A stretch of DNA of 39,525 bases from a virus, in IMG/VR virus record IMGVR_UViG_3300020733_000034, positions 1 through 39,525 of that record, one strand, 5' to 3'. The position numbers and the translations under genes are program-made. Shown piece after piece: positions 1,900 through 37,184 of the stretch. The notes beneath the pieces were generated by a model, which was not told the origin of the DNA, made no database searches, and was given only the letters and a program-made list of their open reading frames with translations. Each line of letters begins with the position of its first letter. The stretch's first letter is position 1.

Positions 1900-2943
1900 A
1901 TGGATAAAAAAGAATTATTAATTGAGTATAGTAAATGTGTTGCTGACCCATGTTATGTTATTGAAAATTACTATGTAACATTCGATAAAACAAGGGAAAG
2001 TTATGTCCCATTCAAATTATTCGAAAGACAAAAAGAGCTCATAAGAAACTATGAAGCTAACAGGTATAACATTGTCTTAAAATACAGACAAGCAGGTATT
2101 ACAACTGTAACTGCTGCTTATGCGGCGGTTAAAGCGGTAATGGCAAACGCTGAAAACCCTGAAAGAATATTGATTCTTGCTAATAAGCAAGAAACGGCAA
2201 TAGAGTTTCTTACAAAGATAACCGACTTTATTAAACAATCACCTAATTGGTTGTTGACAAATATCGGAACATTTAATAAAGAGGGTAAAATTGATTTTAC
2301 AAAGGGTGCCTCTAAACACGTTAAGTTTAAAAATGGTTCTGAAATCAAAGCGGTTGCAACATCTAAAGATGCCTTGCGTGGTTACACACCAACAATCATG
2401 ATTCTGGATGAGGGTGCGTTCATTGAGGGTGGTCAAGAATTATGGTCAGCATGTCTGGCCTCAGTTTCAACAGGTGGTAAAGTATATCTTATCTCAACAC
2501 CTAATGGTATGGATGAAATATACTACGAAGCTTATGAAGGTTCTGTTGACGGTACAAACAAATTCAAAATTACAGCGATCAAATGGTGGGAAGATCCAAG
2601 ATATAACAAAGGTTTAAAAATGATAAAAACCGATGATATTATAAACTGGATTCAAAAACCTGAGGCAGAAAAAAATGAAGAGATTCTCACAGACATTATT
2701 CCAGCTGAAGTAAATGGTGTCGTTAAGCCTGATTTATATAAACAAATCATGAATTATATAACACAAGGTTATCAACCACATTCACAATGGTTTGAGAATA
2801 TGTGTCGTGATATGAACTTAAATAAACGAATGATCAACCAAGAGTTGAATTGTGTTATAGGTCAAACAATGGTTACTATTAGGAATAAAAATACTGGTAT
2901 TATTGAGAATATATTGATTCAAGATTTAAATAGTAGACTCTAA
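1900..2943 (+). CDS. terL: Terminase large subunit, N-terminal half fused to a split-intein N fragment
   Basis: This is the ATPase half of a T4 gp17-like packaging motor. It shows a Walker A-like segment (KYRQAGIT), a Walker B (IMILDEGAF) and the coupling motif STPNG. Residues 1-317 are extein, ending INQELN. From Cys318 (base 2851) the sequence stops matching terminase and becomes an intein N fragment of 30 residues starting CVIGQTMV, which runs straight into a stop. The rest of terminase begins on a separate gene at 3887, after an endonuclease gene. Trans-splicing would join INQELN to CAFIGSG and give a 618-residue protein, close to the roughly 610 of gp17. A late-type motif lies 20 bases upstream of the ATG. 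Confidence 0.96.
   Translation: MDKKELLIEYSKCVADPCYVIENYYVTFDKTRESYVPFKLFERQKELIRNYEANRYNIVLKYRQAGITTVTAAYAAVKAVMANAENPERILILANKQETAIEFLTKITDFIKQSPNWLLTNIGTFNKEGKIDFTKGASKHVKFKNGSEIKAVATSKDALRGYTPTIMILDEGAFIEGGQELWSACLASVSTGGKVYLISTPNGMDEIYYEAYEGSVDGTNKFKITAIKWWEDPRYNKGLKMIKTDDIINWIQKPEAEKNEEILTDIIPAEVNGVVKPDLYKQIMNYITQGYQPHSQWFENMCRDMNLNKRMINQELNCVIGQTMVTIRNKNTGIIENILIQDLNSRL
2851..2940 (+). mobile_element. Split intein N fragment (TerL IntN, 30 aa)
   Basis: Starts with the nucleophile Cys1 and contains the block A pattern C-V-I-G-Q-T-M-V. At 30 residues it is far shorter than the N part of canonical split inteins. It resembles the atypically split AceL-TerL intein known from metagenomic phage terminases (IntN about 25 aa). 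It aligns without gaps with the ClpC IntN at 27536: C1, I3, T6, R11, N12, T15, G16, I18, I21 and D25 are shared. Confidence 0.93.
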
Positions 2944-2959
2944 CTTCTGATTAAATTTA

Positions 2960-2969
2960 AACTATTTAT
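2960..2969 (+). promoter_or_regulatory. Putative late promoter before the TerL endonuclease
   Basis: AACTATTTAT lies 5 bases before the endonuclease ATG. It is the same motif as at 1871 and it could let the nuclease and the downstream TerL-C gene be transcribed independently. With a leader this short the start site would be at or next to the ATG. Confidence 0.45.
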
Positions 2970-2973
2970 TATT

Positions 2974-3897
2974 ATGGAAATAATTAATAAAACAAAAAAA
3001 GGTTGGATAACATCAAAAGCAAAAATAACAAGTGATATTTATGATAAAGATAAAACAATAAAAATATTAAAAGAAAATGATTTTTATTTATCGTTATTGG
3101 GTCGAGCAAAAAACAGAACACTAATAAAAAATGATAGTGTTTTATATAATTCTATATATGAGTATACCAAATCTCTGAATGATTTAAATAAAAATAATAA
3201 TAAATTTTCTATCAGAATTTTATTTTTAGTGAAAGATAGTGGTGATATAGAAAGAATAAAATGTAAAAAATGTTTAAATAATTTAACATCATTTAATTAT
3301 GAAAAAGGTTATTTTAATGAATACTGTTTAAATTGTTTTAATACAAAAAAAATTAAATACCCAAATATTGACTGGTTTAAAACTAAGTACTCATCTAATT
3401 GGGAATATTTCTATAAATTGGATCGTGAGAGAATTAAAAATAAAAAAGTTGGCAGTAAAGATTGGTATATTAAAAAATATGGCGAGTTAAATGGTACATT
3501 AAAATATGATAATGTTAAAGAAAACAGAATTAATAATCTAACTAATTTAATTGGTGTAAAATATTCTAAAATTTCACAAGAAATATTTTGGTTAATTTAT
3601 AAAGAATTAACAGATGATGAAAAAAATAAATGTTATTTTAAAGAACTAAATCATGAATATTTCTTAAAAAACGGTAATTCTTGTTTTTTTATTGATTTTA
3701 AATGTGGTGATTTTGTCATAGAATATGATGGTGAATATTGGCATAAAAATAGAAAAGAATTGGATGAATTACGAAATGTGTTTTATAAAAAAAATAAATT
3801 AAATCTTTTAATACTTAACGAAAAAGATTATAATAGAACAAACAAAAACGAAGACACAATCGAAAAATGTTTGGCGTTTATTAGAAATGAATATTAA
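2974..3897 (+). CDS. Free-standing Vsr-like (EDxHD) homing endonuclease between the terL halves
   Basis: This 307-residue, Lys/Asn-rich protein has a zinc-binding pattern CKKC...CLNC near residues 93-126. Its C-terminal nuclease core reads FVIEYDGEYWHK (E250, D252, E254, H257) within a Vsr/PD-(D/E)XK-like strand arrangement. The same core (SQE-x-F, then IEFNGDCYH) occurs in the endonuclease inside clpC. Endonucleases of this EDxHD class are known to sit between halves of fractured phage genes that carry split inteins. The expected role is to cut intein-free terL alleles and so spread the insertion. Its stop codon overlaps the start of TerL-C by 11 bases, which would couple their translation. 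Confidence 0.88.
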   Translation: MEIINKTKKGWITSKAKITSDIYDKDKTIKILKENDFYLSLLGRAKNRTLIKNDSVLYNSIYEYTKSLNDLNKNNNKFSIRILFLVKDSGDIERIKCKKCLNNLTSFNYEKGYFNEYCLNCFNTKKIKYPNIDWFKTKYSSNWEYFYKLDRERIKNKKVGSKDWYIKKYGELNGTLKYDNVKENRINNLTNLIGVKYSKISQEIFWLIYKELTDDEKNKCYFKELNHEYFLKNGNSCFFIDFKCGDFVIEYDGEYWHKNRKELDELRNVFYKKNKLNLLILNEKDYNRTNKNEDTIEKCLAFIRNEY

Positions 3898-4213
3898 ATT
3901 AAATACTGAATATGAAGTCTTAACACCAAATGGTTTTAAAGATTTTTATGCAATAAAACAAATAAAAAAAACCTATTTGAAAATATCATTTAATAACGGT
4001 GAAGAAATAGGTATAACACCCAATCACATTTTTGTTATTAACAATGTTGAAATTTTAGCTAAAGATATTAAAATTGGTGATAAATTACAAGGTATTCATG
4101 ATGAATTAATAGTAATCTCAATTACACCTGTTGATGAATTTACAGATGTTTATGATTTAATAGAAGTGGATGGTGGTAATATATATTATACTAATAATAT
4201 ATTATCTCATAAT
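3887..4213 (+). mobile_element. Split intein C fragment (TerL IntC, 109 aa)
   Basis: Ends with His-Asn before the +1 Cys. It carries VLTPNGF near the start and the Hint-fold strand pattern (ISFNNGEEI, then NHIF). The architecture matches the roughly 104-residue IntC of AceL-TerL. The break falls after the first strands of the Hint fold, unlike the usual split near the endonuclease site. Confidence 0.93.
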
Positions 4214-5119
4214 TGTGCTTTTATTGGTTCTGGTGATAACGTAATTGATGCGGCAATACTTGAAAAACAATTACAAATAAATGTACAAGACCCAATAATT
4301 AAAGATTCAAGATGGGATAGTACATTATGGATATGGAAATATCCTGAGGAAGGTCACAGATACATTGGTGCCCTTGACGTATCCAGAGGAGATTCCGAGG
4401 ACGCTACTGGATATAGTATTATCGATTTTGATACTTTTGAACAAGTTCTTGAATACCATGGTAAGGTTCCACCTGACGTTGCTGCGATAATTGTTGAGCA
4501 ATATAGTAAAATGTATAATGCATTAACCACTTTCGATATAACTGGTGGTATGGGTATAGCCGCAATCAATAAGCTGAAGGAAATGAATTTTCCATCTAAA
4601 CTTTATCATTACGATGATGATAACGATTTAACATTATTTTATGGTGCGGACTCAGACAAAACACCTGGAATCAACTTTGCTTCAAAAAATAGACGTGTAC
4701 AAATAGTACAGGCTCTCGAAGAAGCTGTATGTCGTGGTGGGTTTAAAATTAGAAGTGTTAGATTAATAAACGAATTGAAAAAATTTGTATTCAAGAACGG
4801 TAAACCTGATCATATGAAAGGTTCACATGATGACCTTATCATGGCCTTGGGTATGTGTTTGTTTGTCGCAAATACCTCTTTCAAAAGATTATCTGAAAAT
4901 ACTTCTACAACAAAAGCTATGTTAGATAGTTGGAAAGTTCAAACTAATAGCATCCAATCAACAGCCGCAAATATGATAAATGATATTAATACGTTAGTCA
5001 GTAACGATAAAATTTATGATAATCAGGGTATTTATAGTAATAAAGAAGAAATATTACAAAATACTCGTGACTTTTCTTGGTTATTTGGTAATATTAATAA
5101 ATATAACCCTCAAAATTAA
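3887..5119 (+). CDS. terL: Terminase large subunit, C-terminal half preceded by a split-intein C fragment
   Basis: Residues 1-109 are an intein C fragment: VLTPNGF, a block-B-like TPNHIFV and the terminal ILSHN. Cys110 (base 4214) is the +1 residue of the C-extein CAFIGSG, the conserved segment that follows the ATPase domain in gp17-type terminases. The nuclease domain follows, with acidic metal-ligand candidates in ALDVSRGD, FDITGGMG and HDDLIMALG, the RNase H-like arrangement of headful nucleases. The C-extein is 301 residues. The ATG lies inside the end of the endonuclease gene (11-base overlap), so translation probably depends on readthrough or reinitiation from it. Without trans-splicing neither half has both motor and nuclease. 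Confidence 0.96.
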   Translation: MNIKLNTEYEVLTPNGFKDFYAIKQIKKTYLKISFNNGEEIGITPNHIFVINNVEILAKDIKIGDKLQGIHDELIVISITPVDEFTDVYDLIEVDGGNIYYTNNILSHNCAFIGSGDNVIDAAILEKQLQINVQDPIIKDSRWDSTLWIWKYPEEGHRYIGALDVSRGDSEDATGYSIIDFDTFEQVLEYHGKVPPDVAAIIVEQYSKMYNALTTFDITGGMGIAAINKLKEMNFPSKLYHYDDDNDLTLFYGADSDKTPGINFASKNRRVQIVQALEEAVCRGGFKIRSVRLINELKKFVFKNGKPDHMKGSHDDLIMALGMCLFVANTSFKRLSENTSTTKAMLDSWKVQTNSIQSTAANMINDINTLVSNDKIYDNQGIYSNKEEILQNTRDFSWLFGNINKYNPQN

Positions 5120-5355: not shown

Positions 5356-8163
5356 ATGGCAAATTTTACAGTATTTCAAAAATTAAATAAAGTTTTAGGT
5401 AATGAATTAGAATCACCTAAATATACCATTGACCCAAATTCATTCAAGAATCTTGACGATCAGGAACTCGAAATGAAACGACTTGAGGCACAGCAGGTCA
5501 TCTATTTACAGAATCAGTGGAAAAAAATTGATAACGAATTATATCAAAAAGCTGTTTATTACGAACCAACCAGAATCGCATCATATTATGATTACGAAGC
5601 AATGGAGTTTTGTTTGGCTGGAGAGACTAAAATAGCAACACCAAGCGGATTCATAACCATAGAAGAGTTAGCTAAAAAGGGTAGGGAGAATGAATTTATT
5701 GTTTATTCCTATGACCATAATACTAAAAAAGTTGTACCAGCATGGGCTAAAAACGCACACCATACAAGAGATGAAGTGACATATAAGGTTATTTTTGACG
5801 ATGATTCTTATATTATTGGTACTTTTGACCATAAATTAATGAAAAGAGATGGTAGTTTTTCAAAAATTTCAGAATTAAAAGAAGGGGATTCTATGATGCC
5901 TTTCTATAGAAAATCTTTTTATAATAACCAAAAATATAATTGGGTTTATACTTGTAATTCATTAGAAGGTTATAATGGTTGGGTATCTGAACACAATTTA
6001 ATTGCTGAGTGGTTCTATGAGACTAAAATTAATGAAGATGAAGAGGTTCACCATATAGATTTTAATGGTAAAAACAATTCCCCTGAAAATTTATCTATTA
6101 TGAAAATATCTGAGCATAGAGCATACCATGCGAGATTAAATAATAGTAAGCTTTGGGTAAATGAGGAATATAGAGCAAAAATGCTTGAAATAAGTAAAAG
6201 AACAGATAATAAACACAAATGGAATGGTGCAAGAAGTGGTAAGAATAATCCAGCTTATTTTAAAATACCTTTTGATTTAATTATTGAAACAGCAAAAAAA
6301 ATTAAAACACTTAAAGGTACGGCGAAAGAGTTAAATATTTCTCACACAAAATTACAAAGAGAAATAATGATGGCTGGATATAAAGACTGGAAAACATTTT
6401 GTCATGCATATAGTATAGAGTTATCTAAATACTCAACAGCAACCGTTAAAGGTGAACAATATGTTCTGAATCATAAAATTAAATCTATTGAACCATATAA
6501 AGTTATACCAGTATATGATTTGACAGTACCAGGGTATAAAAATTTTGCAACAGATACAATATTTTCACATAATACTCCAGAAATTGCTGCTGCGCTTGAT
6601 ATATTTTCTGAGGAGGCAACAACACCTAATGAAAGTGGTAAAATTCTAACAGTATATTCGGAAAGTAATCGTATCAAAGACGAATTAACAGACCTTTTTG
6701 ATAATGTAATCGATATCAATTCAGTTATCACCAGCTGGGCAAGAAACCTATGCAAATATGGTGATAATTTTTTATATAACAAGGTTATTCCAGGTAAAGG
6801 TATTGTGGGTGTAACACAATTACCAAACATCGAAATCACAAGAGCTGAACCAGGTTTCTCAAAAGTTATGAGTATGGATGATTTCCAAAAAGAAAAGAAT
6901 GTTAAATTCTTTTGGAAGGAAAAACAACTTGATTTCAACTCATTTGAGATATCTCACTTCAGACTCATGGGTGATGATAGACGTTTACCTTATGGTACAA
7001 GTATGCTCGAAAAAGTTAGAAGAATTTGGAAACAATTACTTTTAGCCGAAGACGCTATGCTTGTTTATCGTGTTACCAGAGCCCCAGAAAGACGTGTTTA
7101 CAAAGTTTATGTAGGTAATATGGATGAAAAAGACATCGATGCTTACGTAGATAAAGTCGCTAATAACTTCAAAAGATCAAATTTGGTAAACTCATCAAAC
7201 GGACAACAAGATACCAGATATAATGCTATGGCCGTGGATCAAGACTTTTTTATCCCAACCAGAGACCCTCAATTACCAATGCCAATTGAAACATTACCAG
7301 GAGCTCAAAATCTTGGGGAAATAGCTGATATTCAATACATTCAAAATAAAATGTTGGCTGCTCTAAGAATCCCTAAAACGTTCTTAGGTTTTGATCAAGC
7401 TGTTGGTGACGGTAAAAACCTATCCATTCTTGATATACGTTTTGCAAGAGCTGTTTATAGATTACAAAGATCTATAATACAAGAGTTAAATAAAATGGCA
7501 ATCATCCACCTTTATGTTAAAGGTTATGAGGATGATTTACATAATTTTACTCTATCTTTATCTAATCCTTCCACCCAAGCAGACATGCTTAAAATCACTA
7601 ACTGGCAAGCTAAAATACAACTTTACAAAGACGCTGTTACAGATCTTGGTAATGGTTTTGGGCCTGTATCACAAACTTGGGCTAAGAAAGAAATTCTTGG
7701 ATTCAGTGATGATGAAATTAAAATTGATGTTCAAAGACAAGTTGTGGAAAAAGCAGCCTCTGAAGAACTTAAAATGTTGGGTGAAACAATCAAACAAACA
7801 GGTATGTTTAGAGATTTGTATAAATTATACAAGATTGATCCTAACAATATGGGACAAGCGCCTGCTGAAAACCAACAACAAGAAACTCCTCCAGGCGGCG
7901 GAACAGGTGGTGGTGTAGCTCAAGATTTCACAGCACCACTCGAAGGTGGAACAACCCCTGAAATTGGTGGAACGGAAACAACACCAGAAGCTGGTGCTGC
8001 ACCAGAGGCTGGCACGGCTGAAACCCCAATGCCAGGTACGCCAGGTGAAGAAACACAATTACAAGAAAATATGGTAAAAAGGATGTTATTGAATAGAAGA
8101 CAGTCAATAAGTGAAAATATTTCCAAAACTTTGGATGATATTGACAAAATGTTAAACGAATAA
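5356..8163 (+). CDS. 20: Portal protein (gp20-like) with in-frame intein
   Basis: The precursor has 935 residues. Residues 1-85 and 407-935 are portal extein: YEPTRIASYYDYEAMEF joins TPEIAAALDIFSEEAT, then the stem and clip region (VRRIWKQLLLAEDAMLVYRVTRAPERRVYKV) typical of T4-type portals. Removing the intein (86-406) leaves 614 residues, somewhat longer than gp20 because of a Pro/Gly/Thr-rich tail (about residues 830-890) before a short helical C-terminus ending DKMLNE. The portal forms the dodecameric DNA gate at the capsid vertex and the docking site for TerL, encoded just upstream. The gene is co-oriented with terL and separated from it only by one small ORF. Confidence 0.95.
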   Translation: MANFTVFQKLNKVLGNELESPKYTIDPNSFKNLDDQELEMKRLEAQQVIYLQNQWKKIDNELYQKAVYYEPTRIASYYDYEAMEFCLAGETKIATPSGFITIEELAKKGRENEFIVYSYDHNTKKVVPAWAKNAHHTRDEVTYKVIFDDDSYIIGTFDHKLMKRDGSFSKISELKEGDSMMPFYRKSFYNNQKYNWVYTCNSLEGYNGWVSEHNLIAEWFYETKINEDEEVHHIDFNGKNNSPENLSIMKISEHRAYHARLNNSKLWVNEEYRAKMLEISKRTDNKHKWNGARSGKNNPAYFKIPFDLIIETAKKIKTLKGTAKELNISHTKLQREIMMAGYKDWKTFCHAYSIELSKYSTATVKGEQYVLNHKIKSIEPYKVIPVYDLTVPGYKNFATDTIFSHNTPEIAAALDIFSEEATTPNESGKILTVYSESNRIKDELTDLFDNVIDINSVITSWARNLCKYGDNFLYNKVIPGKGIVGVTQLPNIEITRAEPGFSKVMSMDDFQKEKNVKFFWKEKQLDFNSFEISHFRLMGDDRRLPYGTSMLEKVRRIWKQLLLAEDAMLVYRVTRAPERRVYKVYVGNMDEKDIDAYVDKVANNFKRSNLVNSSNGQQDTRYNAMAVDQDFFIPTRDPQLPMPIETLPGAQNLGEIADIQYIQNKMLAALRIPKTFLGFDQAVGDGKNLSILDIRFARAVYRLQRSIIQELNKMAIIHLYVKGYEDDLHNFTLSLSNPSTQADMLKITNWQAKIQLYKDAVTDLGNGFGPVSQTWAKKEILGFSDDEIKIDVQRQVVEKAASEELKMLGETIKQTGMFRDLYKLYKIDPNNMGQAPAENQQQETPPGGGTGGGVAQDFTAPLEGGTTPEIGGTETTPEAGAAPEAGTAETPMPGTPGEETQLQENMVKRMLLNRRQSISENISKTLDDIDKMLNE
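5611..6573 (+). mobile_element. Cis-splicing intein with HNH endonuclease in the portal gene (321 aa)
   Basis: Begins CLAGETKIATPSGF (block A) and ends IFSHN before a +1 Thr. The block-B-like segment is GTFDHKLM. An HNH nuclease lies in the middle: HHIDFNGKNNSPENL begins at His232-His233 of the precursor, with a further His in SEHRAYH. A helix-turn-helix-like stretch (GTAKELNISHTKLQREI) that follows may help recognise the target. The insertion lies at the N-terminal edge of the conserved portal core. Confidence 0.94.
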
Positions 8164-10413: not shown

Positions 10414-11115
10414 ATGGCTATAAAACTATTAAAAGAGGGTGAAGAAGGATTTATATATACATTAACAGACCCAAATACCAACTTGGTTAGATATGTTGGT
10501 AAAGCCAAATCTATAGAGAACAGGTTCAAAGAACATATAAAAAAAGCAAAACTGGGAAAAACACATAAAAATAATTGGATTAATTCACTTTTAAAAAATA
10601 ACCAATTACCAATTATAGAAATAATTGATTCTGTAAGTACCGTTGATATTAATTTTTATGAAATATATTGGATTAATCAATTTAAATCATGGGGGTTCAA
10701 TTTAACAAATGAAGCTAAAGGTGGTTCTGGTGGGAATTTGGGTGATATGGTTAATAAAAAAATTTCAAATAAATTGAAAAATAGAACTTTTAGTCCTGAA
10801 ACAATAGAAAAAATGAGGCTTGCACGAATAGGAAAAAAAGCATCAACTAAAACAAAAGAATTGCTTTCTAAACAAAGATTGGGTAATAAAAATCCAATGT
10901 ATGGAAAAAAAAGATGCATAATATCCAATTATAAAAAGATAATACAATTGGATATAAATAATAAATTTATTAAAGAGTGGGCATCAATAAAAGATGCTTC
11001 AGAAAATTTAAAAATAAGTAGACAACTTATTGGCGATGTTCTTCATAATAGAAAATGGAAGAAAACTGCTGGTGGTTTCAAGTGGGCTTTTAAAAATATA
11101 AATAATGAAATATAG
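10414..11115 (+). CDS. GIY-YIG homing endonuclease (free-standing)
   Basis: 233 residues. The nuclease domain starts GFIYTLTDP and continues RYVGKAKSIENRFKEH, giving the GIY (FIY, residues 13-15) and YIG (YVG, 27-29) elements and the catalytic Arg. Downstream come NUMOD3-type DNA-binding repeats (FSPETIEKMRLARIGKK; LLSKQRLGNKNPMYGKK) and a C-terminal NUMOD1-type module (IIQLDINNKFIKEWASIKDA). This is the classic segD/I-TevI-like layout of phage endonucleases. It sits between the AAA+ gene and gene 21, and its 3' end overlaps the gene 21 start by 11 bases, the same overlap length seen for the TerL endonuclease. It is presumably a selfish insertion in the intergenic region. Confidence 0.93.
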   Translation: MAIKLLKEGEEGFIYTLTDPNTNLVRYVGKAKSIENRFKEHIKKAKLGKTHKNNWINSLLKNNQLPIIEIIDSVSTVDINFYEIYWINQFKSWGFNLTNEAKGGSGGNLGDMVNKKISNKLKNRTFSPETIEKMRLARIGKKASTKTKELLSKQRLGNKNPMYGKKRCIISNYKKIIQLDINNKFIKEWASIKDASENLKISRQLIGDVLHNRKWKKTAGGFKWAFKNINNEI

Positions 11116-26863: not shown

Positions 26864-27640
26864 ATGCAAGAAAAAATGAGCAACGAGCTGAGGATAGCTT
26901 TTCAAAAGGGTTATAAATCAGCAATAATTTTAAATGATAGTCTAATTAGAATTGAACACGTTCTGTACGGTATACTCACTACAAACAATATCATCAGTGA
27001 AATAATTAGTAAAAAACTTGAGGATTTTGATGTTTTCATAAATGACATTGAAGATCATAACAGAAGTATATCGGAAGATATTGACCCAGAATTAAGGACA
27101 GAAAAAGTTCTTAATTTCGAAGATTCTCTTAAGGTATTGGTAAAAAAATGTGCCCAAAAATCTAATGATGCAATTACAGTCAACACATTTTTTATGAGTT
27201 GTTTTGATCTCGATAATCAAATCATCAAAATAATGAACGAATACGGTATAACAAAATCATTTATGCAAAGAAGACTTAAACAACTAACACCAACTGCCTC
27301 TACATTCCCACTCGATGAAAACTTCGAAAAGAGATATGATGGCAATAATTCAAATAGACAAAAATCTAAAACCCCAGTTTTGGATAACTTCAGTCGTGAT
27401 TTAACCATTCTTGCAACTGAGGGTAAACTCGATCCTGTAATTGGTAGAGAAGCTGAAGTTGAACGTGTTGCCCAAATCCTCACCAGACGCAAAAAGAACA
27501 ACCCAGTTCTTATTGGTGATCCAGGTGTTGGTAAATGCTATATTAAAGAAACTAATATATGTTTACGAAATGACCTAACTGGTGAAATTTTTAGTATATC
27601 AGTCAATGATTTTTTAACATCGCTTACCGATGCCAAGTAA
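26864..27640 (+). CDS. clpC: ClpC-like ATPase, N-terminal part fused to a split-intein N fragment
   Basis: 258 residues. Residues 1-224 are the ClpC start: a Clp N-domain ([26 protein letters not shown]), a linker, and the first AAA domain up to the P-loop ([33 protein letters not shown]). From Cys225 (base 27536) the sequence is a 34-residue intein N fragment ([19 protein letters not shown]), then a stop. The rest of ClpC is encoded at 29171 after an endonuclease gene. Trans-splicing would rebuild the P-loop GDPGVGKT exactly. Spliced length is about 820 residues, as in ClpC. It uses the early-type promoter at 26815. Confidence 0.95.
27536..27637 (+). mobile_element. Split intein N fragment (ClpC IntN, 34 aa)
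   Basis: Cys1 follows directly on Walker A Lys224. The 34 residues align gap-free with TerL IntN (shared Cys1, Ile3, Thr6, Arg11, Asn12, Thr15, Gly16, Ile18, Ile21, Asp25), so the two are related. The stop comes at the same place in the Hint fold. Confidence 0.92.
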
Positions 27641-27680
27641 TCTTTTTTTTAAATAATTGATTTACTTTCTTAATTTTTAT

Positions 27681-27689
27681 ACTATTTAT
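27681..27689 (+). promoter_or_regulatory. Late promoter-like motif before the ClpC endonuclease
   Basis: ACTATTTAT lies 6 bases before the endonuclease ATG at 27696, the same placement as in the TerL locus (2960-2969). Confidence 0.45.
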
Positions 27690-27695
27690 TGTGGT

Positions 27696-29150
27696 ATGAG
27701 AATTGTAACAAAAAAAGAAAGTTTTGATTTTAAAGAATATTTTAAAACTGTTAATGATTTAAAAACATTTATCAAAGAAAATAATGAATTTGTAAATGTT
27801 GAAGGTATTGGTGAAAAGATAGGTAAATTATATGATGATTTATCCGAATTAGATATTTCTTTAAAATCATCGGTTTTACCTGAAAGATTAATTTATTATC
27901 TTGGTTTTAAGAATAGGTCAGCATTTAAGTTGGATTTTTGGTTGGAGCGTGGTAATACTATAACCGAATTTAATACTTGGTTATTAAAAAGGAGAAATAT
28001 TGAACCAGTTAAATCTTTGGAATGTGGTAACGTAAATAAATTCGAATACGGTGAGTTTAAATTTACGTTTGATGGTAGACCAGTTTGTAATTTATGTAAA
28101 TCCGATTTAACATTTGATGTTTTAACCGATAGGTATGTGATAAAAAATTGTCAAAATGATGGTTGTCCAACACACAAAAATCAAGATCAATACTTCATAA
28201 GGCAACTGGCTTATTTGCCTATTGATATTTTTAAAAATAAAAATAAGAGAACTAACATAGAATCGAGGATTCATCCTTATTTTTGGTTGTTGTCTGGTTT
28301 AACTTATGATGAGTCGTTGAAAAAATGTGAAGAGATAAAAACCACACTTAAAAATAAAATAAAGGGGTCAGATGAATATTATAAGATTTTATTTGGTTTG
28401 ACTGATGAAATGGCTTTAGATAGGGCTTTAGCACCAACTCAAATTAGGTTTTGGGTTAATAGGGGTTTTTCGGAGGAGGATGCTAAGATCAAAGTGTCTG
28501 AAAACCAAAAGAATGCGGCTAAATCTGTTGATTTTGAGAAACGGTTATTACCATCAAATATTGAGTATTGGATTAAAAGGGGTTTAACGGAAGATGACGC
28601 TAAGGTTGAAGTATCTAATCATCAGAGGACGTTTACACTTCAAAAATGTATTGATAAACATGGTGAAGGAACTGGTAACCTTATCTATACTAAACGACAA
28701 GTTAAGTGGCAAACTTCATTAATTGAAAATGGGAATTTAAAATGTGGGTTTTCAAGAATATCACAAGAATTATTTTATCGACTATTAGACGAATATTCAT
28801 TTAAAGAAAAAATTGACGTTTTTTTTGCTACAAAAAATAAAGAATATTTTATATCTTTAAAGGGTGGTGAATTTTATCAATATGATTTTGTTGATAGGAA
28901 TAAAATGAAAATTATCGAATTTAACGGTGACTGTTATCATGCAAACCCAATTAAATATAATGAAAATGATAAGCCCAATCCGTTTAGACAAAACCTAACA
29001 GCATCAGATATATGGGCTAAAGATAAAAGAAAAACGGAAGTTGCTATTGAAAACGGTTTTCAGCTCTTAACAATATGGGAATCGGAGTATAAAAAGAATA
29101 AAGAGTTAACAATAAAAAAATGTTTGGATTTTTTGGAAATCCGAGAATAA
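27696..29150 (+). CDS. Vsr-like (EDxHD) homing endonuclease between the clpC halves
   Basis: 484 residues. The start chosen is ATG 27696, because the longer frame begins at a TTG and runs through the late motif. A zinc-finger-like CNLCKSDL then CQNDGCPTH occurs around residues 130-165. Three related segments follow that end in a Glu/Asp-Ala helix: HPYFWLLSGLTYDESLKKC, APTQIRFWVNRGFSEEDAK and LPSNIEYWIKRGLTEDDAKV. They are probably tandem DNA-contact modules. The C-terminal nuclease core has FNGD and H: KIIEFNGDCYHANP (E408, D412, H415), then IWAKDKRKTEVAIENGFQLL. It is homologous to the nuclease inside terL over this core. The role is to cut uninterrupted clpC alleles. Confidence 0.88.
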   Translation: MRIVTKKESFDFKEYFKTVNDLKTFIKENNEFVNVEGIGEKIGKLYDDLSELDISLKSSVLPERLIYYLGFKNRSAFKLDFWLERGNTITEFNTWLLKRRNIEPVKSLECGNVNKFEYGEFKFTFDGRPVCNLCKSDLTFDVLTDRYVIKNCQNDGCPTHKNQDQYFIRQLAYLPIDIFKNKNKRTNIESRIHPYFWLLSGLTYDESLKKCEEIKTTLKNKIKGSDEYYKILFGLTDEMALDRALAPTQIRFWVNRGFSEEDAKIKVSENQKNAAKSVDFEKRLLPSNIEYWIKRGLTEDDAKVEVSNHQRTFTLQKCIDKHGEGTGNLIYTKRQVKWQTSLIENGNLKCGFSRISQELFYRLLDEYSFKEKIDVFFATKNKEYFISLKGGEFYQYDFVDRNKMKIIEFNGDCYHANPIKYNENDKPNPFRQNLTASDIWAKDKRKTEVAIENGFQLLTIWESEYKKNKELTIKKCLDFLEIRE

Positions 29151-29163
29151 ATAACTAAATTTG
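29132..29163 (+). promoter_or_regulatory. Bacteroidota-type promoter for the clpC C half
   Basis: TTTG (29132-29135), 20 bases, TAAATTTG (29156-29163), inside the end of the endonuclease gene and just before the ATG at 29171. The predicted start falls at about 29170, so the mRNA may be leaderless or use ATG 29177. Confidence 0.6.
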
Positions 29164-29170
29164 CAAAAAA

Positions 29171-29650
29171 ATGACAATGAATTACTACGAATTTTATGAA
29201 CAAGAGTCGTTGGCTCAGTTAGATAAGGATTACCCAAATGAAGAAGGGCATAAAAAATTCACCAAAACTTGGAATATCGAAAATTTTAGTGTTTTAACGG
29301 ACAATGGATTTCAAAAAATTGATAAACTACATGAAACAATATCGTACAATGTTTATCATTTAATATTGGATAATGGATTTGAACTTAAATGCGCTGATAA
29401 CCATATTGTTATGTTACCTCGTATGGTTAACATGGTAAGACAACTCGATAATATGAGTGAATCGACAGAACCTATTGAATGTTATGTTAAAAATTTGAAA
29501 CCAGGTGACTTAGTTCATACTAATGATGATATTGGTTGTGCCTCTGTTGTATCCGTAACCAATCTTGGATATCAAGAGAATATGTATGATTTGCAATTAT
29601 CAGACGATTCTAACCACAGATATTACACTAATGGTATATTGAGCCATAAT
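29171..29650 (+). mobile_element. Split intein C fragment (ClpC IntC, 160 aa)
   Basis: Contains [28 protein letters not shown] and the terminal [10 protein letters not shown], homologous to TerL IntC (VLTPNGF, NHIF, YTNNILSHN). About 35 residues precede the conserved part and have no counterpart in TerL IntC. An extra loop ([15 protein letters not shown]) lies mid-domain. Confidence 0.92.
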
Positions 29651-31441
29651 ACAGCTATCGTTGAAGGATTGGCCATTAAAATAGCAAATAACGATTGTCC
29701 CAGAACATTGCAAGGTAAGCGTCTTGTTACGCTCGACCTAACCTCAATGGTTGCTGGTACAAAATATCGTGGCCAGTTTGAAGAACGCATAAAAGCGTTA
29801 CTTGATGAAGTTCGTGATAACGATCAGGTTATATTATTCATTGATGAACTACACACAATGGTTGGTGCTGGCAATTCATCTGGTTCCCTTGATGCTGCAA
29901 ATGTATTCAAACCAGCTCTTGCTCGTGGTGAAATACAATGCATTGGTGCAACAACTCTTGACGAATATCGTGAACACATTGAAAAAGATGGTGCACTTGA
30001 TAGAAGATTTCAGAAAGTAATGGTTAACCCACCATCAATTACTGAAACCAGAGATATTTTAATGAACATAAAAAACAAGTATGAGGACTATCATAAAGTA
30101 ACTTATACTGAAGATGCTGTTGATGAAATTGTAAGACTTGCTGATAGGTATATTACCAATCGTGAATTTCCAGACAAAGCTATTGATATACTTGATGAAG
30201 CTGGCTCACGCACACACATTAATATAAAACCACCTCAAATCATTAAAGATCTACAAGACGAGATTAATGAAATTAAAGTTGAGAAACAAAATGTTGTTAA
30301 AACACAAAATTTTGAAAAAGCAGCAGACCTTAGAGATAAGGAAAAGAAACTATTAACACAACTTGATAAAGAATCTGGTATTTGGAAAAAAAGTCTTGAA
30401 ATAGATAGAGTTGTTATCGATGAAAACATGATAGCTGATGTTGTATCATCAATGACTGGTATACCTGTAAGTAGGGTTTCACAAAACGAAATTCAAAGAT
30501 TACTTCAAATAGACACTGAATTAAAAGATTCTGTGATAGGTCAAGATGAAGCAATTCAAAAAGTTGCTTCAGCTATCAGACGTAATAGAACTGGTATAAG
30601 CAGAAAAAGTAGACCAATTGGTTCTTTCATGTTTATAGGCCCTTCAGGTGTTGGTAAAACGGAACTTGCCAAAACTCTCGCTGAAAAAATCTTCGGAACA
30701 CAAGATGCTTTAATCAGATTTGATATGTCTGAATTCGGTGAGAAATTTAATGTAAGTAAACTTATAGGTTCACCTCCAGGATATGTTGGTTATGAAGAAG
30801 GCGGCCAACTTACAGAAAAAATTAAGAATAAACCCTATTCATTAATATTGTTCGATGAAATCGAGAAAGCGCACCCAGATGTTTTTAATATCCTACTCCA
30901 ATTACTGGATGAAGGTCATCTTTCAGATTCATCAGGTAGAAAAATAAACTTTAAAAATACCATCGTCATTATGACATCTAATATCGGTATTAGAGAAGTT
31001 CAAGATTTCGGAACCAAAATTGGTTTTAGCGCCGATGGTTCAGAAGATGATTTGAAAAACGCAAATTATATCATAGAAAAAGCTTTGAAAAAGCAATTCA
31101 AACCAGAGTTTTTAAATAGGTTAGATGATATAATTTACTTTAATTATCTTAAAGATGAAAGTATATTAAAAATTATCGATATACAATTAAACGATCTTGA
31201 AGAGAGATTACTCGAATCTTGTTATACACTTGAAATTGGTAAAAACGTTAAAGAATACGTATTAAAACAAGGTTATGACAAAAATTACGGAGCCAGAGAA
31301 ATTCAACGAACAGTTCAAAAATACCTCGAAGATCCTATTTCCGAGGAATTGTTAAAAGAACATATGCCTAAATTTGCACATATTACCGTTGGTTACGATA
31401 AGAAAAATGATAAGCTAAATATCAAAATAACCACTACTTAA
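29171..31441 (+). CDS. clpC: ClpC-like ATPase, C-terminal part preceded by a split-intein C fragment
   Basis: 756 residues. Residues 1-160 are intein C fragment ending [10 protein letters not shown]. Thr161 (base 29651) starts the C-extein [13 protein letters not shown], completing the D1 P-loop. D1 continues ([45 protein letters not shown]). A coiled-coil middle domain contains a UVR-like segment ([15 protein letters not shown]), the ClpC hallmark. D2 has its own P-loop [16 protein letters not shown] and Walker [14 protein letters not shown]. The C-terminal domain ends with [20 protein letters not shown]. There is no ClpP partner in the window, so unfolding for a host protease or free chaperone action are both possible. 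It has its own early-type promoter. Confidence 0.95.
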
Positions 31442-34742: not shown

Positions 34743-37184
34743 ATGGCAAATTACACCGATGAACAATTAGATTTTATCAATTATTCTGGCACCGATTCAA
34801 TAATTCTTTCCGCAACAGCTGGCTCAGGTAAAGAACAACCTTTATTTTGTAAAGTTTTAACGCCAAATGGTTGGGTTAGAATGGGCGACCTTAAATGTGG
34901 CGATGAAGTTTTAACACCAACAGGTGAAATTAGTAAAATAACTAATATATATCCACAAGGTATAAAAGAAGTATTTAAAATAACTTTTAGTGATGGTTCA
35001 TTTACTTATGCTGGACACGAACACCTTTGGAAAGTTCAAACCAGAAACCAAAGATCCACATATAGTAAGAATTATAGTGTTTTAACAACTGATAAAATAG
35101 CACAAAAATTGTTTAAAACTGATTCAAGAGGTATTAAATATAAATTTTATTATATACCCTTGACTGACATAGCATATAAAGAAAAAAACTTACCAATAGA
35201 CCCATATTTATTAGGTTGTTTACTTGGTGATGGTGGTATGAGTCGTAATTCACAAGTAACTTTTACCAATAGTGATCAGTTAATTTTAGATGAAATAAAA
35301 AAATTAATTGAAAAATATGATTTGAAATTAAAAGAAAAAAAAGGTGATCCTGGAAATTACTATATATCTAAAGAAATACCTAATCATAAAAATGAATTAA
35401 TCGATCAATTAAGATCATTAGGTTTAATGGAACATCTATCGGTTGGTAAATTTATACCAAAAGAATATTTAACAGCATCTAAAGAACAAAGATTAAGGTT
35501 ATTAAACGGTTTATTAGATACAGATGGTTATGTTGATAAAAATTCGGTGTACATAACATTATCTTCAAAACAAATGTCGGATGATATTGTTGAATTGGTT
35601 AATTCTATTGGTGGAATTGTTTATGTTACATTAAAAAAAGGTAGATATAAAAAAAATGGTATATATGTAGATTGTAATCAGGCTTATGTAATGTCTATAT
35701 GTCTTCCTAAAGAATTAAAATATAAAGCATTTACACTACCAAGGAAAAAAGATTTATTAGCTGATAAGGGTAAGACATATATACCCTATAGAGCTTTTGA
35801 TAAAATTGAGTTTTATGATAATGTTGAATGTCAATGTATTGAAATAGATCACACCGATCATCTTTATGTAACAGATAATCATATTGTTACACATAATACA
35901 CATTCAACTGTTGGTAGATTAAATAAAATGGTTGACGATGGAGTGGATCCTCAAAAAATCATATTTTTTAGCTTTACAAATGACGCTGTTGATGAATTAA
36001 AACGCCGTATCAAACATGACGTTAAAATCACAACAATTCATAGTTTCACAGCTTCTTTACTTGGCAAAATGGGCAGATTTAAAAAGATTGCCACATTTTA
36101 TGATTTTGTGAACTGGTATAAAGAAAAATATAAACCAGCTCCAAGAGCACCCAAAAATATTAAAGATGAATATCAACAAATGTTAACCTTCTTTTATGAA
36201 GAAGGAAATCAGGTATCAGCATCGTTCTCAGCGTTTAAATTACAAACATCAGATGGATTCAAATTACCAAAGCCTGAACATTACGTTGATTACGATAAAT
36301 TCCTAAGAGAAACTCAATCAAGAGATTTTGCTGACATGTTGATAGACACTGAAAAGCTATCACGTGATCCAAAATATATTAAATATTTTGAGGGTCTTTA
36401 CGACCACATATTTGTTGATGAATACCAAGATACATCAACTTTACAACTAAAAATATTGTTGGCTATAAAAGCCAAACAATACTATCTTATTGGTGACGAA
36501 AATCAATCTATTTATGGGTTCTCAGGTGCAAACTGTGATATGATTGAACAACTACTTACATCAAAACATAAGACCACAAGAATGACCTTAACAAAAAACT
36601 TCAGGTCTGATAAAAAAATAGTTGAACACGCTAATAAGTACAGTAAAATCACAGCTATACCACACTCTGAAAATGATGGTAGTGTTAAATATGATCTTAT
36701 TGATAAGTTTGATTTAATTGAAATGATAAATGATGATAGACCATTGGCAATTCTTGTTAGAACCAATAATGTTATTAAAGACCTCGAAGAATATTGTCTT
36801 AAAAGTAAACTTAAGATAAGATATAATAATTTTATAACTAATGATGAGCTTAGGCATATTAAGGAAAACAATATAAATCCATCGTTGAAACGTAGATTGG
36901 ATAGAATTACCTCATATTTTGTTAGCGTTGAAAAACTGGTACAGTTTATTGAAGCAAACAAAGAGTCAATGAAATTTATTACCAGTATCCACAAAAGTAA
37001 GGGTAGAGAATTCCCAAGATGTGTTATTGTTAATTCGCTCGATCCAGAATTAGCAGAAAGATATGGTGTTGATGATGATTACACTTACTTAACTAAAGAT
37101 GGTGACATTGACCAAGAAGAAAGAAATGTTCACTATGTGGCCGTAACAAGACCAATGCACGAAGTTTACTTCATGATATTTTAA
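34743..37184 (+). CDS. SF1 (UvrD/Rep-like) DNA helicase with in-frame intein
   Basis: 813 residues as precursor. The start chosen is ATG 34743; an in-frame extension to 34590 precedes the promoter. Extein 1-30 ends at Walker A ATAGSGK and resumes at Thr386 (THSTVGRLNKM). Helicase motifs are intact: Ia FSFTNDAVDELKRR, TIHSF, II IFVDEYQDTS, III LIGDENQSIYGFSGA, IV TKNFRSDKKIV, V SIHKSKGREFPRCVIVNS and VI VHYVAVTRP. Mature length is about 458 residues, much smaller than UvrD and near T4 Dda, so it may be a compact replication or recombination helicase. Splicing must restore GKT for ATP binding. A terminator follows directly. Confidence 0.94.
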   Translation: MANYTDEQLDFINYSGTDSIILSATAGSGKEQPLFCKVLTPNGWVRMGDLKCGDEVLTPTGEISKITNIYPQGIKEVFKITFSDGSFTYAGHEHLWKVQTRNQRSTYSKNYSVLTTDKIAQKLFKTDSRGIKYKFYYIPLTDIAYKEKNLPIDPYLLGCLLGDGGMSRNSQVTFTNSDQLILDEIKKLIEKYDLKLKEKKGDPGNYYISKEIPNHKNELIDQLRSLGLMEHLSVGKFIPKEYLTASKEQRLRLLNGLLDTDGYVDKNSVYITLSSKQMSDDIVELVNSIGGIVYVTLKKGRYKKNGIYVDCNQAYVMSICLPKELKYKAFTLPRKKDLLADKGKTYIPYRAFDKIEFYDNVECQCIEIDHTDHLYVTDNHIVTHNTHSTVGRLNKMVDDGVDPQKIIFFSFTNDAVDELKRRIKHDVKITTIHSFTASLLGKMGRFKKIATFYDFVNWYKEKYKPAPRAPKNIKDEYQQMLTFFYEEGNQVSASFSAFKLQTSDGFKLPKPEHYVDYDKFLRETQSRDFADMLIDTEKLSRDPKYIKYFEGLYDHIFVDEYQDTSTLQLKILLAIKAKQYYLIGDENQSIYGFSGANCDMIEQLLTSKHKTTRMTLTKNFRSDKKIVEHANKYSKITAIPHSENDGSVKYDLIDKFDLIEMINDDRPLAILVRTNNVIKDLEEYCLKSKLKIRYNNFITNDELRHIKENNINPSLKRRLDRITSYFVSVEKLVQFIEANKESMKFITSIHKSKGREFPRCVIVNSLDPELAERYGVDDDYTYLTKDGDIDQEERNVHYVAVTRPMHEVYFMIF
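34833..35897 (+). mobile_element. Class 3-like intein with LAGLIDADG endonuclease in the helicase P-loop (355 aa)
   Basis: Inserted between Lys30 and Thr of GSGK|T. It begins EQPLFCKVLTPNGWVRMGDL with no Cys/Ser at position 1. It has block B GHEHLWKV (Trp), a Cys in ECQCIEIDHTDHLYVT and Thr in VTHN|T. This is the W-C-T set of class 3 inteins, where an internal Cys starts the reaction. LAGLIDADG-type motifs are LLGCLLGDGG and LLNGLLDTDGYV. Confidence 0.88.

What the first reader, a model, noticed from the sequence alone, without database searches (positions are those of the whole stretch)
2851..4213. terL is fractured by an atypically split intein with a homing endonuclease gene between the halves
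The TerL ATPase half ends in a 30-residue intein N fragment and a stop. A separate EDxHD-type endonuclease follows. The TerL nuclease half then begins behind a 109-residue intein C fragment ending HN before Cys. Trans-splicing would rebuild INQELN-CAFIGSG and a gp17-sized protein. The short-N/long-C break resembles AceL-TerL from metagenomes (established), but here the endonuclease and both halves are seen together in genomic context. The packaging motor would depend on protein trans-splicing.
Basis: partly seen in the sequence, partly recalled or inferred. Interest (0 to 1): 0.9.

Follow-up and report, generated by a model that had tools for sequence, protein, structure and literature searches.

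The report
Split-intein packaging motor gene in phage
This phage's DNA-packaging motor gene is really broken into two pieces that each carry part of a self-splicing protein tag, with a gene-drive nuclease between them; the arrangement is real but already known from many phages, and its value here lies in a near-identical sister phage that shows how such elements come and go.

Summary
TerL-N (1900-2943) ends in a 30-aa intein-N fragment (2851-2940). A 307-aa endonuclease follows (2974-3897). TerL-C (3887-5119) starts with a 109-aa intein-C fragment ending SHN|C.

Against all PDB sequences, the intein-N and intein-C fragments each hit, as best match, their own chain of the same entry: 6dsl, the consensus atypically split 'Cat' intein. 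The endonuclease profile hits I-Bth0305I (3r3p, EDxHD), E=1e-6. Removing the insert gives QELN|CAFIGS; 45 intein-free relatives read QELE|CAFIGS.

The novelty claim fails. This is the 'fractured gene' arrangement. It is annotated in Aeromonas phage PX29 and readable in Providencia, Serratia and Vibrio isolates. I found 78 TerL loci (redundant) with an intein at this site, 71 split.

What adds value is around it. The same fragment holds a second fractured gene, a Clp ATPase split at Walker A, and two contiguous inteins. A 95-98% identical sister contig lacks those three cleanly. It keeps the TerL split although its endonuclease is mostly deleted. An intein tree requires at least five split/contiguous changes and frequent endonuclease turnover.

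Verdict: new member of a known kind.

The parts
1900..2850 (+). TerL N-extein: ATPase half (317 aa), ends INQELN
   Evidence: Pfam Terminase_6N 2.2e-9; PHROG terminase large subunit 4e-31; dN/dS 0.018-0.12
2851..2940 (+). intein-N fragment, 30 aa, Cys1; TAA stop at 2941-2943
   Evidence: best PDB match CatN 6dsl_A, E 1.4 alone; same position and similar length in split TerL loci
2961..2969 (+). ACTATTTAT, promoter-like motif just upstream of the endonuclease ATG
   Evidence: 8 in window vs 1.6 expected, 0 of 100 shuffles reach 8; also upstream of TerL (1872) and of the Clp endonuclease (27681)
2974..3897 (+). free-standing EDxHD-type homing endonuclease, 307 aa
   Evidence: profile A3 vs PDB: 3r3p_A I-Bth0305I 1e-6; invariant E228, D241, E250, H257; relatives hit DUF559/MTES_1575
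3887..4213 (+). intein-C fragment, 109 aa, block B TPNH, ends SHN; overlaps the endonuclease by 11 nt
   Evidence: 6dsl_B CatC 7e-16; invariant H47, H108, N109; dN/dS 0.03-0.30 in close pairs
4214..5119 (+). TerL C-extein: nuclease half (301 aa), Cys+1
   Evidence: PDB 3c6a 8.9e-7; PHROG terminase 3.5e-11; Pfam Terminase_6C 8e-4
26864..27535 (+). second fractured gene: Clp ATPase N part ending GDPGVGK (Walker A)
27536..27637 (+). Clp intein-N fragment, 34 aa, Cys1, then TAA
   Evidence: absent in sister contig
27696..29150 (+). EDxHD-type endonuclease between the Clp halves (484 aa from ATG)
   Evidence: shares the invariant E/D/E/H with the TerL endonuclease
29171..29650 (+). Clp intein-C fragment, ends SHN, +1 Thr
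   Evidence: Pfam Intein_splicing 6.9e-5; nearest isolate relatives are TerL inteins of Vibrio phages
29651..31441 (+). Clp ATPase C part, TAIVEGLA...
   Evidence: Pfam AAA_2 6.6e-66, ClpB_D2-small
5611..6573 (+). contiguous HNH intein in portal gp20 (ORF 5356-8163)
   Evidence: clean empty site in L012
34833..35897 (+). contiguous LAGLIDADG intein at Walker A of a UvrD-like helicase (ORF start about 34743)
   Evidence: clean empty site in L159

Best explanation
The insert is a mobile fractured-gene cassette in gp17-type terL. Three proteins are translated: TerL ATPase half + intein-N, a homing endonuclease, and intein-C + TerL nuclease half. The two intein pieces associate into a Hint fold and trans-splice. 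Cys1 (2851) attacks, the chain transfers to Cys+1 (4214), and Asn109 (4211-4213) cyclises. This yields a normal 618-residue TerL joined INQELN-CAFIGSG, near the ATPase/nuclease domain border. The endonuclease would cut the uninterrupted terL junction of a co-infecting phage, and repair would copy in the whole cassette. Splicing makes the insertion tolerable, and once split the phage depends on it. Shown here: anatomy, homology, conserved catalytic residues, purifying selection, empty sites, and endonuclease loss with the split kept. Inferred: splicing activity, cleavage site, homing.
For: Intein pieces match CatN/CatC. Block-B His, His-Asn and Cys+1 are invariant and Cys1 nearly so. Extein joint equals the intein-free TerL sequence QELE|CAFIGS in 45 contigs. 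Joint maps to about T4 gp17 residue 353. Endonuclease profile hits I-Bth0305I at 1e-6. TerL halves and intein-C are under purifying selection: dN/dS 0.02-0.12 and 0.03-0.30 in close pairs; a relative's endonuclease 0.10. The same phage's Clp cassette is cleanly absent from a ~97% sister contig, so whole fractured cassettes come or go precisely. L012 and L016 lost the endonuclease to different extents yet keep both intein pieces and the same stop. TerL intein/endonuclease pairings are repeatedly reshuffled.
Against: No experiment here. Intein-N dN/dS is noisy (0.05-1.85, 30 codons). AlphaFold gave a poor model of the intein-C part (pLDDT 30-77), and the endonuclease fold match to 3r3p is weak alone (E about 0.9). 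No closely related TerL locus without the intein was found; the intein-free relatives match TerL-C at 65-74% or less.
Confidence: 0.88

Rival explanations
1. The two TerL halves work as separate non-covalent subunits without splicing, as the endonuclease-split Aeh1 NrdA and phage-25 gp43 do.
For: The break lies near the ATPase/nuclease domain border; such split enzymes are documented in T4-like phages (PMC2988022).
Against: There is no reason then to keep Cys1, block-B His, HN and Cys+1 and a purifying-selected 109-aa intein-C. Split loci repeatedly have contiguous-intein neighbours in the tree, where splicing in cis is the only option.
Confidence: 0.06
2. Decayed or mis-assembled locus: terL is a pseudogene, or a frame-restoring error makes it one gene.
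For: Only one stop codon separates the intein-N frame from the endonuclease frame, and the next junction is a frame shift.
Against: Identical in three assemblies. The stop is conserved in L012 and L016, and a stop plus the 11-nt overlap recur in L013/L014. The exteins are under strong purifying selection.
Confidence: 0.01
3. The split intein splices, but the endonuclease is only a passenger in an intergenic gap and does not mobilise the intein.
For: L012 and L016 do without it; a mosaic of nuclease families sits in the same slot.
Against: It lies exactly between the intein pieces with overlapping or near-overlapping ORFs in many lineages, in some fused to one half (L001, L002, L140, L157). A relative's copy is under purifying selection.
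Confidence: 0.08

Closest known systems
AceL-TerL / GOS-TerL / consensus Cat atypically split inteins
   Same: Same host gene, short-N/long-C split (Cat 30/104 aa, here 30/109), Cys1, HN|C, sequence homology; Cat lengths from PMC11766414
   Different: A distinct sequence in a T4-like phage whose major capsid protein is nearest to Flavobacterium phages and a 484-kb uncultured phage. The contig L156, AceL-like by recalled sequence only, carries a GIY-YIG-type nuclease between the halves, this one an EDxHD nuclease
[quoted passage not shown] 2009)
   Same: Conserved gene interrupted by a split intein with a free-standing endonuclease between the halves
   Different: None in kind, as far as known; the paper's text was not available here. 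Two such genes in one phage fragment, and a sister contig with one cassette missing and the other without most of its nuclease, are additional data
Aeromonas PX29 gene 17A/17B; Providencia PSTRCR_127, Serratia 92A1, Vibrio Va1 terL
   Same: Same TerL site, same atypical split; PX29 annotated as N-intein/C-intein; Va1 with EDxHD nuclease
   Different: GIY-YIG nuclease in PX29, PSTRCR_127 and 92A1; nuclease fused to intein-C in PX29 and Va1
I-Bth0305I (EDxHD homing endonucleases)
   Same: Catalytic core profile E=1e-6
   Different: I-Bth0305I comes from a mobile group I intron (PMC3943268); this one sits between intein halves with other N-terminal domains

Membership tests
Atypically split TerL inteins (AceL/GOS/Cat) | short intein-N (about 25-37 aa), long intein-C (about 104 aa), two ORFs | tested here: met
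   30 and 109 aa on two ORFs
Atypically split TerL inteins (AceL/GOS/Cat) | sequence homology of both pieces | tested here: met
   CatC 7e-16; CatN best PDB match but E 1.4 alone
Atypically split TerL inteins (AceL/GOS/Cat) | nucleophile at 1, block-B His, terminal Asn, nucleophile at +1 | tested here: met
   C1, H47, H108-N109, C+1
Atypically split TerL inteins (AceL/GOS/Cat) | trans-splicing activity | not testable with these tools
   needs co-expression
Fractured genes (Dassa arrangement) | conserved gene split by a split intein with a free-standing endonuclease between the halves | tested here: met
Fractured genes (Dassa arrangement) | intein-free homologue restores the gene at the same site | tested here: met
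   QELE|CAFIGS in 45 contigs
EDxHD homing endonucleases | catalytic core homologous to I-Bth0305I | tested here: met
   profile E 1e-6; fold match TMt 0.67 to 3r3p_B but E 0.9
EDxHD homing endonucleases | conserved E, D, H, D catalytic residues | tested here: met
   E228, D241, H257 invariant in 12 sequences; D264 invariant in the 5-sequence set only
EDxHD homing endonucleases | site-specific cleavage of the intein-free allele | not testable with these tools
   biochemistry needed

The most novel reading that the evidence does not exclude
TerL inteins at this site switch repeatedly between contiguous, split-with-nuclease and split-without-nuclease states, because different nuclease genes invade and leave the same point of the intein. 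The GIY-YIG nucleases travel with a half-site copy of their own target fused to a late promoter, making them self-repressing like I-TevI. One phage can run two such fractured genes (TerL and a Clp ATPase) at once, the Clp cassette having jumped from a terminase P-loop.
Probability: 0.3. Interest if true: 0.65.

Novelty: new member of a known kind. Interest (0 to 1): 0.45.

Why it matters
Fractured genes are a natural source of the split inteins used in protein engineering, but how a gene becomes and stays split is unclear. This locus comes with a near-isogenic comparison: the window and a 95-98% identical contig differ by three cleanly present or absent inteins, a free-standing endonuclease gene, and a nuclease deletion inside a split that persists. 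That makes gain, loss and dependence directly testable. The Clp and TerL inteins of one phage are also a naturally co-resident, presumably orthogonal pair.

Tried and rejected
Pfam, PHROGs and PDB with the single endonuclease sequence: no useful hit; only the 12-sequence profile reached 3r3p. Foldseek of the endonuclease model: nothing below E 0.1, so used only as weak support. AlphaFold of intein-C + TerL-C: intein part unreliable, not searched further. Target half-site copy upstream of the EDxHD nucleases, window included: not present. Thymidylate synthase of 402 aa suspected of an intein: read through, none seen. Dassa 2009 not held; the T4-genomes paper does not mention inteins. A 'homing tract' reading of the window/L012 divergence pattern was not pursued: flank differences are few and the genomes are mosaic.

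Full report
OBSERVATION. The layout is exactly as reported. TerL-N ORF 1900-2943 ends INQELN|CVIGQTMVTIRNKNTGIIENILIQDLNSRL*. The endonuclease ORF is 2974-3897. TerL-C ORF 3887-5119 begins with 109 residues ending NILSHN|CAFIGSG. TerL identity rests on Pfam and PHROGs. The intein identity is strong: of 177,635 distinct PDB sequences, the intein-C ORF's best match is CatC (6dsl_B, 7e-16), and the 30-residue intein-N's best match is CatN of the same entry (6dsl_A; E 1.4 alone). Cat is the consensus of GOS-TerL and AceL-TerL (PMC11766414).

THE ENDONUCLEASE. The single sequence matches little. A profile of 12 relatives, including the Clp-associated one from the same window, hits I-Bth0305I (3r3p, 1e-6), the EDxHD prototype (PMC3943268). 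Relatives hit the DUF559/MTES_1575 nuclease families. E228, D241, E250 and H257 are invariant. The fold match is to the right protein but not significant alone.

NOT AN ARTEFACT. The locus is identical in contigs of two other datasets, one of 190 kb (L011, L015). The intein-N stop is conserved in L012 (95% identical TerL-C ORF) and L016 (61%), and L013/L014 keep a stop and the 11-nt overlap. Between close relatives, both TerL halves and intein-C are under purifying selection (dN/dS 0.02-0.12 and 0.03-0.30); in L013/L014 the endonuclease is too (0.096). Forty-eight intein-free junctions were read, 45 of them as QELE|CAFIGS; the window's flanks join as QELN|CAFIGS. The joint corresponds to about residue 353 of T4 gp17, near the end of the ATPase domain (domain limits from general knowledge).

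HOW COMMON IT IS. An intein-C profile scan of IMG/VR gave 195 relatives from a single search pattern; the 80 best were kept. Parsing them with the isolates gave 78 TerL loci (redundant) with an intein at this same site: 71 on two ORFs, 7 contiguous in one ORF. Where it stands alone, intein-N is about 28-44 aa. The slot between the pieces holds EDxHD, GIY-YIG or HNH nucleases or nothing. The nuclease may be fused to either half (L001, L002, L140, L157). Isolates include Aeromonas PX29, whose GenBank entry already says N-intein and C-intein, Providencia PSTRCR_127, Serratia 92A1, Vibrio Va1 and EniLVp02. The first 34 of the 40 isolate records listed align to the intein-C region, at this site or, in those read such as phiS and Campylobacter PT14, at a Walker-B site. 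So the arrangement is known and widespread.

EVOLUTION. A tree of 50 distinct inteins puts the window with L012 and L016 (100/99). Split versus contiguous needs five changes, all forced by well-supported branches: L101/L138, L117/L108, L116/L111 and L001/L122 are split/contiguous neighbours. Nuclease state needs 19 changes in all. L146, L148 and L150 carry the same intein as L145 without its GIY-YIG gene; a single TGA now splits it. In L012 and L016 the endonuclease is deleted to different extents, with the split kept. The split therefore outlives its nuclease. Direction is not resolved in general, because the tree is unrooted and the alignment is short.

A NEAR-ISOGENIC COMPARISON. Contig IMGVR_UViG_3300032241_002908 is 95-98% identical to the window. 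It lacks, cleanly, the gp20 intein (5611-6573), the Clp cassette (27536-29650) and the helicase intein (34833-35897), and it lacks the GIY-YIG gene near 10414-11115. Where the window reads GGTAAA|TGC...CATAAT|ACAGCT in Clp, the sister reads GGTAAA|ACAGCT. A whole fractured cassette therefore comes or goes as one precise unit, which supports both mobility and splicing.

SECOND FRACTURED GENE. The Clp ATPase is split at Walker [16 protein letters not shown]. It has a 34-aa intein-N, a 484-aa EDxHD-type nuclease with the same invariant residues, and a 160-aa intein-C fragment. Its intein-C is nearest, among isolates, to terminase inteins of Vibrio phages (41%); in VP-1 that intein sits at the TerL Walker A, QSGK|T. 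This suggests a jump between P-loops of unrelated ATPases. The paper search found nothing on a phage Clp intein, which is weak evidence of novelty.

A SIDE OBSERVATION. In 13 of 21 GIY-YIG-type loci, a copy of the start of the C-extein (about TGTRARTTYYTWGGA) follows intein-N directly. In 11 of these, TATAAATA starts 16-17 nt after the start of the copy, just upstream of the nuclease start codon. Neither feature occurs in the 29 other loci. T4 I-TevI represses its own late promoter through an operator resembling its homing site (PMC2988022). The same design is a reasonable hypothesis here. It does not apply to the window's EDxHD type.

MECHANISM AND CONFIDENCE. Trans-splicing to a 618-residue TerL plus nuclease-driven homing is by far the best explanation (0.88). 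Anatomy, homology, selection and empty sites are shown; splicing, cleavage and homing are inferred. The main rival, two non-covalent TerL subunits, has real precedents in T4-like phages but does not explain the conserved splicing residues.

VERDICT. A real, functional-looking fractured terL, and a new member of a known kind. The surrounding comparative material is worth more than the locus itself.

Noticed in passing
window 26864-31441: Second fractured gene: a Clp ATPase split at Walker A by an atypically split intein with an EDxHD-type nuclease; cleanly absent in a ~97% identical sister contig (L159).
   Followed up: yes
window 5611-6573 and 34833-35897: Contiguous inteins in portal gp20 (HNH) and at Walker A of a UvrD-like helicase (LAGLIDADG; residue 1 is Glu with a block-B Trp, class-3-like by eye). 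Both are absent in the sister contig.
   Followed up: partly
L145:3984-4007, L113:4110-4133, also L101, L156 and others, right after the intein-N stop: Copy of the C-extein half-site (about TGTRARTTYYTWGGA) abutting a T4-type late promoter TATAAATA upstream of GIY-YIG nuclease genes: possible I-TevI-like autorepressor operator.
   Followed up: partly
L146, L148, L150 versus L145: Same split intein with and without the GIY-YIG gene; without it a single TGA codon separates intein-N from intein-C.
   Followed up: partly
L116, L120, L122, L137, L138, L088: TerL genes interrupted at two or more sites, apparently by several related inteins, some split.
   Followed up: no
L109 4433-5000: An HNH nuclease whose C-terminal part resembles that of the GIY-YIG nucleases found at the same site: possible catalytic-domain swap on one DNA-binding module.
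   Followed up: no
L016 5001-7313: TerL with the split intein lacking most of its nuclease plus a second, contiguous intein at MKGSHDD|C.
   Followed up: no
L167 (190-kb contig that holds the window's sequence): A ribonucleotide reductase ORF with apparently three inteins; with those in the window the phage would carry about seven.
   Followed up: no
window 1872, 2961, 27681 (+) and 18211, 19384, 19405, 33694, 39304 (-): ACTATTTAT is enriched (8 vs 1.6 expected) and lies mostly 5-45 nt upstream of start codons, including TerL and both fractured-gene nucleases: likely this phage's promoter element.
   Followed up: partly
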